Below are positions 61,020-64,000 of a stretch of DNA of 64,000 bases, one piece after another. Below the pieces are notes generated by a model that ran no database searches, had not been told where the DNA came from, and worked only from the letters and a program-made list of their open reading frames with translations. Position 1 is the stretch's first letter; every line of letters starts with the position of its first letter. The stretch covers positions 1 to 64,000 of the forward strand of contig JAFYOS010000025.1 in the NCBI GenBank assembly GCA_017560125.1. Direction: 5' to 3'. The stretch is from Bacteroidaceae bacterium (GTDB taxonomy: Bacteria; Bacteroidota; Bacteroidia; Bacteroidales; Bacteroidaceae). The position numbers were made by a program, and so were the translations under genes.

Positions 61020-62036
61020 TTACTTATTGATAAGCATTCGCATTTCGTTCACTCGCTCGGCCACATCGGCAAACTGCTCGGGTGTGAGCGACTGTGCACC
61101 GTCGCACAATGCGCAAGGCGGGTTGTTGTGTACCTCGATGATAAGGGCGTCGGCACCTGATACTGTAGCTGCGCAAGCCATGGGCTTCACAAGGCGGGCA
61201 ACGCCTGTTGCGTGGCTGGGATCGACAACTACGGGCAAGTGTGAAAGCTCGTGGAGCATGGGAACCGATGCAAGGTCGAGCACGTTACGTGTATATGTGT
61301 CGAAGCTGCGGATGCCTCGCTCGCAGAGCATGACATTCTCGTTACCCTCGGCAAGTATGTACTCGGCGCTCATGAGGAACTCCTTGAGGGTTGCGGCAAG
61401 ACCGCGTTTAAGAAGAATAGGTTTCTTTGAGCGTCCCAACTCCTTGAGAAGCTCAAAATTCTGCATATTTCGTGCACCCACCTGTATGATATCCACATCG
61501 GCAAACATATCGAGGTGAGCGGCATTCATAATTTCTGTTACAATGGGCAGTCCGGTCTCTTTGCGAGCCTTGAAAAGCAACTCAAGACCTTCGCCACGAA
61601 GTCCCTGAAAATCGTATGGAGATGTACGGGGTTTGAAAGCTCCTCCACGAAGCATCTTGGCACCGGCGGCCTTCACAGCCTTGGCAACGGTGATAATCTG
61701 CTCCTCAGATTCCACAGAACAGGGGCCGGCAATCATACAGAAGTTGCCACCACCTATCTTGACCTTGTTCTCGCCCTCACCCACCTCAACGACTGTATCG
61801 TTGGGATGAAAACGGCGGCTCGCACTCTTAAAGGGCTCGCTCACACGGCTCACCTTATCTACTATCTCGAGGCTGGCGAGCAGGTCTATGTCTATTCTAC
61901 TTGTATCTCCGATAAGACCAATAATGGTTTGGTACTCACCTTCGCATACGTGAACTCTCACTTTTTGCGCTTCTATCCATTGGACAAGTTTATCTTTTTG
62001 CGCTTTTGTAACTCCGCTTTTTAATACAGCTATCAT
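61020..62036 (-). CDS. aroF: 3-deoxy-7-phosphoheptulonate synthase, type I-beta with regulatory domain
   Basis: A 338-residue enzyme that starts the shikimate pathway from phosphoenolpyruvate and erythrose 4-phosphate. The N-terminal 70 residues are a ferredoxin-like regulatory domain, as in the Thermotoga enzyme, where it binds tyrosine or phenylalanine. The barrel starts at '[17 protein letters not shown]', followed by '[19 protein letters not shown]', '[20 protein letters not shown]' and '[12 protein letters not shown]'. It is the first gene of the six-gene aromatic operon. The gene symbol may be given differently (aroG/aroA in Gram-positives). Confidence 0.95.
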
Positions 62037-62077
62037 ACGTCTTTCGTATTTATTTTGTTATTTCTCTTTAGTCGGCA

Positions 62078-62085
62078 CAAATATA
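62078..62085 (-). promoter_or_regulatory. -7 box of the aromatic amino acid operon
   Basis: Minus strand TATATTTG, an exact fit, about 42 bases before the aroF start codon. No leader peptide or riboswitch seen. Confidence 0.6.
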
Positions 62086-62372
62086 CAAATAAAAACTACC
62101 GAGAAAAGCTGTTTCCTGTTTTTTTTGGCCCGAATATTGGTTTTATGGCGCTTTTATTGCAAAAAGCATTACAAATTCCATCGACAAAAGATTTTCCCGA
62201 AACTACGTTGCACGATATATCATATAAGGATATAACAACAAAAAAGCATTTCAAAAAAAATTACTTTACAGCAGAGAGAAGAAGAGCGAAACAAGAAGGA
62301 TATAACCATGAAGACATTTAAGCCTTAATGCAAATAAATCGCTTTTATTCGCTTGATTACACATACTATCAC

Positions 62373-62380
62373 TATCTTTG
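62373..62380 (+). promoter_or_regulatory. -7 box of the phosphoethanolamine transferase gene
   Basis: TATCTTTG, an exact fit, 78 bases before the ATG at 62458. It excludes the upstream ATG at 62353 and places the N-terminal reading frame inside the transcript. Confidence 0.6.
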
Positions 62381-62457
62381 TAAACGTATTGCATATTGTC
62401 ATTCGTGCATTATGTATAAAAGCCAAGAAACACAAAGATTATCTTACAGATACTACT

Positions 62458-64000
62458 ATGCAAAATATTCAAACTGGAATTAAAATTTACTTTGAAAAGT
62501 TCTCAGATTTCATCTGTCGTTTTTACAATCGACTCGGTTGCATCGCATCCCCATTTGTAAAAGAATTTCCATATATCGTCATATTCCTGAAACTAATGGG
62601 AATAGCAGCAATATGGAACAGCAAAGAGACCCTAATTCAAAAAATAGGGGGGGGGAAGCATACACGCCTCTCTTTGGCAGAATGGCCTTACTATTCCTTT
62701 TTGCATACATCGGTGCGACCATTATATATAATATAAAACAACGTACACTCAAACTGGCGGTAAAAATTTTCTTTTACTTTATAACGGTAACCCTATATAC
62801 AATCGCGTTTTTCCTACAAACAAATTTCCAACTTGAAATTTGCAATCCCACCTGCTTTACATTATTGGCAGAAACAACATCTACCGAATCGCGCGAATTC
62901 ATCGATCAATACATATTTTCCAGCAGCATAATCCCAACGCTAAAGAAAGTATTTATTTATCTATTTATAATCATATGCTCCGAAATCTTATGGAACAAAA
63001 TTATAAATAGGCCCAACAAGCAATACACCATTGCAAAAATCCTTATAACAATTACATTAACACCGATACTACTATTTGCTTCATATTCAACAAATATATA
63101 TTGGAAAATATATAATGCCAAGTCTACCGATGAAATAAGTTTTCTAACTGCACCAACAGATCCCATTTCATCCATTTTCCTTTCACATTGCTTGCTTAAC
63201 ACGATGAAGCAAAGCATGGAAAAATTCACAATACTAAACAAAGCTATATATAATGAGGCGGCATCGCATAACACATCAAACGATTCATTAAATATAGTTG
63301 TAGTCATTGGAGAATCTTATATAAAATCACATTCTCGGTTATATGGTTACAATTTAAATACAACCCCTAATTTAAGTAAGGAGCAAAACAAGGAACGGTT
63401 ATTTGTTTTTAACGATGTAATAACATCGTCTAATAGCACAAGTCTTATAATGAAAAACATCGTATGCTGCAACAACAGCAGCAGCGGTGAGGATTGTTAT
63501 GACTACCCGAGTTTTCTCACTATATTCAAACAAGCCGGATACGACGTCTATTTTTGGGACAACCAAAAGAGCATGGCCGAAAACGCAGTATATTCATACA
63601 CATTGAATAGTTTCTTATACAATCCCGAGATATGCAAAGTAGCATATACAAAAACAAACGACCAATCGTTTCAATATGACGAACAGATTGTCGATTCATT
63701 CGAAGAAAACATTGGCGAGCCACCGGGCAAGCACAATATTGTACTATTCCACCTGAACGGACAACATACGATGCCCAATGAACGCTATCCACACAATACT
63801 TTCAAACATTTCACCGCCGATAGTGTGAAAAACGACCAACCATATATAACCGATGAAATGAAAGAGCAAATCGCCCATTACGACAATGCCACCTTATATA
63901 ACGACTATATACTTAATCGCATTATTAGGTTATTCGAAAACAGCAACACCATGCTAGTTTATTTTTCCGACCACGGCGAGGAAGTATATGACTACAGACC
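62458..64000 (+). CDS. Phosphoethanolamine transferase (EptA-like), frame broken at a G9 tract, cut by the window end
   Basis: A sulfatase-fold membrane enzyme that should add phosphoethanolamine to lipid A or another surface glycolipid. The frame from the ATG at 62458 gives a first hydrophobic segment ('YIVIFLKLMGIAAIW') and ends at 62736 after the G tract. The second frame, open from an ATG at 62613 to the window end, continues with membrane segments ('ALLFLFAYIGATII', 'IFFYFITVTLYTIAFF' and more), then the catalytic domain: 'NIVVVIGESYIKSHSRLYGY' with metal-site glutamate, 'SSNSTSLIMKN' with the nucleophile threonine, 'FHLNGQH' and 'YFSDHGEEVYDY'. With 10 or 7 G the two frames join into one protein with the normal membrane topology. 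The G9 form is off unless translation starts at 62613. The tail is missing. Confidence 0.8.
62647..62655 (+). repeat. Homopolymer of nine G inside the phosphoethanolamine transferase gene
   Basis: The longest G run noticed in the window, in an otherwise A+T-rich gene, exactly at the point where the two halves change frame. Slippage to 10 or 7 G restores a single frame. A sequencing error in the run is the simple alternative. Confidence 0.9.

What the first reader, a model, noticed from the sequence alone, without database searches (positions are those of the whole stretch)
62458..64000. Possible phase-variable phosphoethanolamine transferase with a G9 switch
The first membrane segment is in one frame and the rest of an EptA-like protein in another. 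The switch point is a run of nine G. A count of 7 or 10 G fuses both frames into a protein with the usual layout of membrane segments and catalytic domain; other counts, including 9, do not. Homopolymer slippage is an established way to switch surface genes in Campylobacter and Neisseria, but is much less described in Bacteroidales, where DNA inversion dominates. Switching this enzyme would change surface charge, with likely effects on cationic peptide and polymyxin resistance. An alternative start at 62613 could still give a shorter protein.
Basis: partly seen in the sequence, partly recalled or inferred. Interest (0 to 1): 0.82.

Follow-up and report, generated by a model that had tools for sequence, protein, structure and literature searches.

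The report
Slippage-switched surface-decorating enzyme in gut Bacteroidaceae
A gut bacterium's gene for an enzyme that decorates its outer surface is split by a run of nine G letters, and related species carry similar runs of differing length in the same kind of gene, which suggests a random on/off switch of a sort known in meningitis bacteria but little described in this group.

Summary
G9 at 62647-62655 separates a first membrane segment (ATG 62458) from the rest of a phosphoethanolamine (PEtN) transferase in another frame; the gene ends at 64310, outside the window. Same-genus homologues (43-56% identity) hold both parts in one frame. The enzyme scores nearer EptC/CptA (core heptose) than EptA (lipid A), so the polymyxin inference is weak.

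Comparison favours phase variation. In another genus of the family, three orthologues share a C tract at codons 16-18: C9 in frame, C8 and C7 out of frame, under purifying selection all the same. A further genome splits helix 1 from the rest by G8 in the window's loop. Two same-genus paralogues carry C10 and C9 at codon 4, in frame. Runs of 8 or more cluster in the 5' part of these genes (6 against 0.54 expected). Against: the window gene's four nearest homologues have no tract, and no reads or second strain were available, so switching within a strain is inferred.

The kind is known (Neisseria eptA, pptA); the lineage is new to the papers I could search. Side finding: many poly-G runs of this genus sit at a fixed distance upstream of the Bacteroidetes -7 promoter box.

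The parts
62037..62457 (.). AT-rich region between a divergent ORF on the minus strand (61020-62036) and the start of segment A; presumed to hold the promoter
   Evidence: promoter role is inference
62458..62736 (+). Segment A: reading frame from ATG 62458 that carries the first membrane segment and runs out of frame after the G run, closing at 62736
   Evidence: matches the N-termini of L020, L019, L021
62566..62616 (+). Most hydrophobic 17-residue stretch of segment A, the presumed first transmembrane helix
   Evidence: Kyte-Doolittle maximum 1.93 at residues 37-53
62647..62655 (+). G9 homopolymer tract, the presumed slippage site, in the loop between helix 1 and helix 2
62538..64000 (+). 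Segment B: frame with the remaining four hydrophobic segments and the catalytic domain; continues beyond the window to a stop ending at 64310 of G000:C22
62613..62615 (+). Alternative ATG in the frame of segment B
63291..63992 (+). In-window part of the Sulfatase-superfamily (PF00884) catalytic domain
   Evidence: residues 227-460 counted from 62613

Best explanation
The gene encodes an inner-membrane PEtN transferase of the EptC/CptA-like branch, with one membrane segment in A and four in B. The G9 tract in the loop between helices 1 and 2 is a slippage-prone contingency tract. In the deposited state, translation from 62458 leaves the frame just after helix 1 and stops at 62736 (OFF). Replication slippage would change the tract length in some cells and so make or break the enzyme, changing PEtN decoration of the LOS core or another periplasm-facing acceptor at random in the population. 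Shown: G9, two frames, homologues that span both parts, and recurrent 5' tracts with length and frame differences in related genes. Inferred: slippage in this strain, reversibility, acceptor and phenotype.
For: Homologues in the genus carry both parts in one frame. G9 is far beyond local chance. In another genus of the family, orthologues G442 (C9, in frame), G673 (C8, out of frame; 91% identical to G442) and G594 (C7, out of frame; 80%) share one tract at codons 16-18. G355 splits helix 1 from the rest with G8 in the homologous loop. Same-genus paralogues G009 (C10) and G025 (C9) carry an in-frame tract at codon 4. In 94 unique homologous genes, runs of 8 or more: 6 in 41.4 kb of N-terminal windows against 5 in 380 kb elsewhere, 0.54 expected. 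Purifying selection persists where the deposited copy is out of frame (dN 0.044, dS 0.625 for G442/G673; dN 0.053, dS 0.287 for G355/G513; pN/pS 0.135 for G673/G594, both out of frame). The same mechanism is documented for Neisseria eptA and pptA (passages of PMC10525099 and PMC3656113).
Against: The window gene's four nearest homologues (L019-L022) have no G/C run of 6 or more in the gene, so this tract is not conserved. G355's sister G513 reads G3AG5 there, so G8 could be a plain one-base loss. G594 also differs by a base just before its tract; its net length difference from G442 is one base, as in G673. The assembly is metagenomic in style, with 6.4% contamination, and no reads were available. 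Six G runs of 9 or more per genome is within low-order chance models. In one search the windows were set after tracts had been seen, one of the six runs is the window gene itself, and the C8/C9 pair shares one inherited tract.
Confidence: 0.74

Rival explanations
1. Assembly or sequencing miscount of the homopolymer: the chromosome is really in frame and nothing switches.
For: Long G runs are error-prone; the genome is a draft in 37 contigs with 6.4% contamination; no reads available.
Against: The tract itself is long whatever its exact count. Out-of-frame tracts are found independently in G355, G673 and G594, and other lesions are rare in these genes: only a few matches are flagged with internal stops.
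Confidence: 0.12
2. A plain frameshift in a dying gene: the copy is a recent pseudogene with no return.
For: The deposited frame is broken and the nearest homologues have no tract. Related genes with internal stops or split frames exist (G007:C58, G002:C43, G043:C161).
Against: Segment B has no stop over its whole length and keeps 303 of 548 aligned residues of L019, including the catalytic columns; in relatives, genes with an out-of-frame deposited copy remain under purifying selection.
Confidence: 0.08
3. Recoding: ribosome or RNA-polymerase slippage on the run makes some full-length protein from the present sequence, without DNA switching.
For: Homopolymers can cause transcriptional slippage (recalled, no call).
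Against: The tract base, position and length differ between relatives, and some copies are in frame without any need for recoding; no conserved stimulatory signal was sought.
Confidence: 0.04
4. The real protein starts at 62613 (or 62538) and segment A is not part of it.
For: An ATG at 62613 is in frame with segment B.
Against: Intact homologues include the first membrane segment, segment A matches their N-termini, and a protein from 62613 would have four hydrophobic segments instead of five stretches.
Confidence: 0.02

Closest known systems
Neisseria eptA (lptA), lipid A PEtN transferase under a homopolymeric tract in its reading frame (PMC10525099, passages)
   Same: PEtN transferase of the same superfamily; homopolymer inside the reading frame; frame-dependent expression
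   Different: Different branch (EptC/CptA-like here), different phylum, acceptor unknown; switching not measured here
Neisseria meningitidis pptA, poly-G in the coding region (PMC3656113, passages)
   Same: Poly-G of 7 to 11 in the coding region of a related transferase; most piliated strains have 8G, which is in frame
   Different: Acts on pilin with phosphorylcholine; in that paper 11G is in frame but the protein is inactive; here no activity is known
E. coli EptC / Salmonella CptA (PMC10525099, passages)
   Same: Best NCBIfam model (CptA) for segment B and best solved relative (EptC) for L020
   Different: Below the family cut-off (220 against 404 bits); no phase variation is mentioned for E. 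coli or Salmonella eptC in the passages seen
DNA-inversion phase variation of Bacteroidales (PMC12632263, passages)
   Same: Random ON/OFF variation of surface structures in the same order of bacteria
   Different: Recombinase-driven inversions; 'slipped' and 'homopolymer' do not occur in that review's main text

Membership tests
PEtN transferase of the sulfatase / alkaline phosphatase superfamily | PF00884 domain above cut-off | tested here: met
   133 bits against a cut-off of 25 for segment B
PEtN transferase of the sulfatase / alkaline phosphatase superfamily | Conserved catalytic threonine and metal-binding residues | tested here: met
   E280, T322, D497, H498 (L020 numbering) invariant in 31 sequences including segment B; their roles are recalled from EptA
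PEtN transferase of the sulfatase / alkaline phosphatase superfamily | Five N-terminal membrane helices | tested here: inconclusive
   By hydropathy one segment in A and four in B; in L020 seven overlapping windows that merge to about five stretches. No structure model could be had
EptC/CptA (NCBIfam) | Score above the curated cut-off | tested here: not met
   PRK10649.1 220 bits against 404; CptA domain model 204 against 900. It resembles this branch but is not filed as a member
EptA / MCR | Score above the curated cut-offs | tested here: not met
   P_eth_NH2_trans 125 against 500; PRK09598.1 110 against 561; MCR models 45-58 against 1200-1250
Phase-variable (contingency) locus by slippage | Homopolymer in the reading frame whose length sets the frame | tested here: met
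   G9 between two frames
Phase-variable (contingency) locus by slippage | Tract length differs between related genomes with in-frame and out-of-frame states | tested here: met
   Met for the G442/G673/G594 orthologues, not for the window gene itself, whose nearest homologues have no tract
Phase-variable (contingency) locus by slippage | Reversible, high-rate switching within a clone, with a phenotype | not testable with these tools
   No reads, isolates or chemistry

The most novel reading that the evidence does not exclude
Gut Bacteroidaceae run a second, little-noticed contingency system beside DNA inversion: homopolymer slippage. It acts inside reading frames of PEtN transferases (5' G or C tracts that arose at several places) and in a class of promoters where a G run sits a fixed distance upstream of the TAnnTTTG -7 box, often before genes of secreted proteins, so that surface lipids and surface proteins vary at random.
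Probability: 0.45. Interest if true: 0.82.

Novelty: new member of a known kind. Interest (0 to 1): 0.57.

Why it matters
Phase variation in Bacteroidales is described mainly through DNA inversion. Surveys that look only for invertible DNA would miss frame switching of surface-decorating enzymes by homopolymers. If true, gut Bacteroidaceae populations hold cells that differ at random in PEtN decoration, which may bear on host recognition, phage attack and tolerance of antimicrobial peptides. It can be tested from existing metagenome reads, and it warns that such genes may be annotated as pseudogenes.

Tried and rejected
Tract conservation in the nearest homologues of this gene: not found; L019-L022 lack any G/C run of 6 or more in the gene.

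Genome-wide excess of long G runs as sole proof: rejected; six runs of 9 or more lie within the range of chance models (0.2 to 6.7).

The window tract as a case of the promoter element: rejected; it lies inside the gene with other flanks, and the own genome has no match to either promoter pattern (one hit to the control pattern).

Other strains of the same species: none in reach. The single-protein scan of genome contigs confirmed no relative; the four-row alignment gave 17 loci, none recognisable as the same species (the tool says very near records may be left out).

Structure model of an intact homologue: not obtained.

L046 G8: not used as evidence, it is the first 8 bases of its contig; it entered no count. 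L265 G9: inside the gene but far downstream, counted as 'body'.

Full report
OBSERVATION. The window's last 1.5 kb reads as described. Nine G occupy 62647-62655. Upstream, an ATG at 62458 lies in a frame that closes at 62736; downstream, another frame is open from 62538 (TTG) or 62613 (ATG) past the window end to a stop ending at 64310 on the same contig, G000:C22. The host is a 2.61 Mb assembly in 37 contigs, 98.5% complete, 6.4% contamination. The gene stands alone: ORFs on the other strand upstream that look like aromatic-pathway genes, and a PEP-carboxykinase-like ORF 327 bases downstream; these names are recalled from the sequences, not searched.

TAXON. 

CHANCE. The gene is 36% GC. With pG 0.145 about 4.5e-5 runs of nine or more G are expected on its coding strand, and no other G/C run in it exceeds four. 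In 384 kb of own-genome sequence (window plus sixteen 20-kb stretches) G/C runs number 21 of length 6, 3 of length 7, none of 8 and one of 9, which is this one. Genome-wide there are six runs of nine or more; Markov models predict 0.2 (order 5) to 6.7 (order 1), so the total proves nothing by itself.

WHAT IT IS. Segment B has a Sulfatase-superfamily domain; segment A alone matches no Pfam family. Of NCBIfam's models the best is CptA, 220 bits against a cut-off of 404; lipid A / EptA models score 125 and 110. For the intact homologue L020 the best solved relative is EptC, E 3.7e-39; others include neisserial LptA/EptA at 4e-12 and MCR-1 at 2.5e-8. E280, T322, D497 and H498 (L020 numbering) are invariant in 31 aligned sequences; their catalytic and metal roles are recalled. 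I call it an EptC/CptA-like PEtN transferase. In E. coli EptC modifies heptose I of the core (PMC10525099, passages). The acceptor here is unknown.

BOTH FRAMES BELONG TOGETHER. In 44 genomes of the genus, 34 have a match to segment B at E up to 0.001. The four best relatives, at 56, 54, 52 and 43% identity (L019-L022), carry the first membrane segment and the rest in one frame (L022 is cut by its contig end). Segment A alone matches the N-termini of L020, L019 and L021 with pairwise E-values of 8e-08, 4e-07 and 5e-04. Hydropathy gives one segment in A and four in B. None of these four relatives has a G/C run of six or more in the gene, so the tract is not conserved among them.

RECURRENCE. 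(1) G355, another genus of the family: helix 1 in one frame, the rest in another, eight G between, in the homologous loop. Its 89%-identical relative G513 has an uninterrupted frame and reads G3AG5 there, so a plain one-base loss is possible. (2) In G355's genus three orthologues share a C tract at codons 16-18: G442 C9, in frame; G673, 91% identical, C8, start codon and remainder in different frames; G594, 80% identical, C7 with one further base changed before the tract, net one base shorter than G442, also out of frame. (3) Two same-genus paralogues have C10 (G009) and C9 (G025) at codon 4, in frame. (4) G002 has C6 at that place with its ATG out of frame with the rest; a non-ATG start further on cannot be excluded.

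COUNTS. One search took 131 loci fetched by homology (and 12 of the 17; each search returns only its best loci), leaving 94 unique genes after removal of duplicates and genes without the anchor motif. N-terminal windows (41.4 kb): 7 runs of seven or more, 6 of eight or more, 4 of nine or more. Elsewhere in these genes and their flanks (380 kb): 7, 5 and 1. Expected in the windows from the rate elsewhere: 0.76, 0.54 and 0.11. Cautions: windows set after tracts had been seen; the window gene is among them; G442, G673 and G594 share one inherited tract.

NOT DECAYED. Downstream of the tract the five compared relatives have no stop. dN and dS are 0.044 and 0.625 for G442 (in frame) and G673 (out of frame), 0.053 and 0.287 for G513 (in frame) and G355 (out of frame); for G673 and G594, both out of frame, pN/pS is 0.135 with dS near saturation. 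This fits a reversible switch or very recent loss better than old pseudogenes. In the window gene, 303 of 548 aligned residues after the tract equal L019, with no internal stop.

MECHANISM. Replication slippage on the tract would change its length in some cells, and only some lengths let translation from 62458 continue into segment B. The deposited sequence is in the OFF state. That it slips in this strain, is reversible, and alters LOS is inferred.

KNOWN KIND. [quoted passage not shown] lpt3 of Pasteurella multocida is called phase variable in the same review. Searches for slippage or homopolymer phase variation in this group (listings) showed no paper on such a transferase in Bacteroidales. 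Passages seen: a B. fragilis paper suggests slippage at a run of four C in a polysaccharide locus (PMC3090145); a 2025 phase-variation review speaks of Bacteroides through invertases (PMC11868660); a 2025 Bacteroidales review uses 'inversion' 13 times and 'slipped' or 'homopolymer' never (PMC12632263). The library lacks most subscription journals, so this does not prove absence.

SIDE FINDING. 97 runs of nine or more G were placed: 91 of the 92 distinct runs parsed from a listing that stops at G037, plus the 6 own runs. The pattern G7-TAA-N14..18-TAnnTTTG occurs 70 times in 30 of 44 genomes of the genus with 0 for the reversed control pattern, and 13 times in 10 of 100 genomes of G355's genus, control 0. 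TTAAC-N2..6-G6-N0..8-TAAA occurs 66 times against 3, with G runs of 6 to 10. Of 17 instances read in context among loci in hand, 16 have an ORF start within 150 bases, median 76; many of these ORFs begin like secreted proteins. Run length varies between loci; variation at one locus within a strain was not tested. One literature search on this (listing) showed no paper that I recognised as describing it.

Noticed in passing
Genus of the window, e.g. L053, L067, L135, L136, L152, L163; not the window itself: Promoter-like element TTAAC-N4/5-G(6 or more)-TAAA followed at fixed distance by the -7 box TAnnTTTG, in front of ORFs that often begin like secreted proteins (MRKFTLLIASLFITIGAMAQ...) or an ABC-type ATPase. 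70 hits against 0 control hits in 44 genomes; run length varies between loci, possibly a spacing switch.
   Followed up: partly
L078:906-916 (G000:C14): G11 (C11 on the coding strand) in frame at residue 238 of a 287-residue ORF that looks like a glycosyltransferase (name recalled, not searched); a second candidate contingency tract in the same genome.
   Followed up: no
G000:C8:59597, G000:C26:141213, G000:C2:58119, G000:C17:23869: The other four long G runs of the own genome: 64 bases before a lipoprotein-like ORF, 32 bases before a membrane-protein-like ORF, a wide intergenic space, and just before a terminase-like ORF (names recalled).
   Followed up: no
L127 (G011:C20:48779-48792): G14 (C14 on the coding strand) in frame at residue 221 of a 431-residue ORF, encoding a proline run.
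   Followed up: no
L175 (G032:C23:48477) and L145 (G007:C36:3168): Runs of nine near the 5' end of long ORFs (residue 8 of 643 and residue 23 of 749); the real start codons may lie after the run, which would make these upstream tracts.
   Followed up: no
G007:C58, G002:C43, G043:C161: Related PEtN-transferase genes with an internal stop or split into two frames away from any long homopolymer seen; possible true pseudogenes or draft errors.
   Followed up: no
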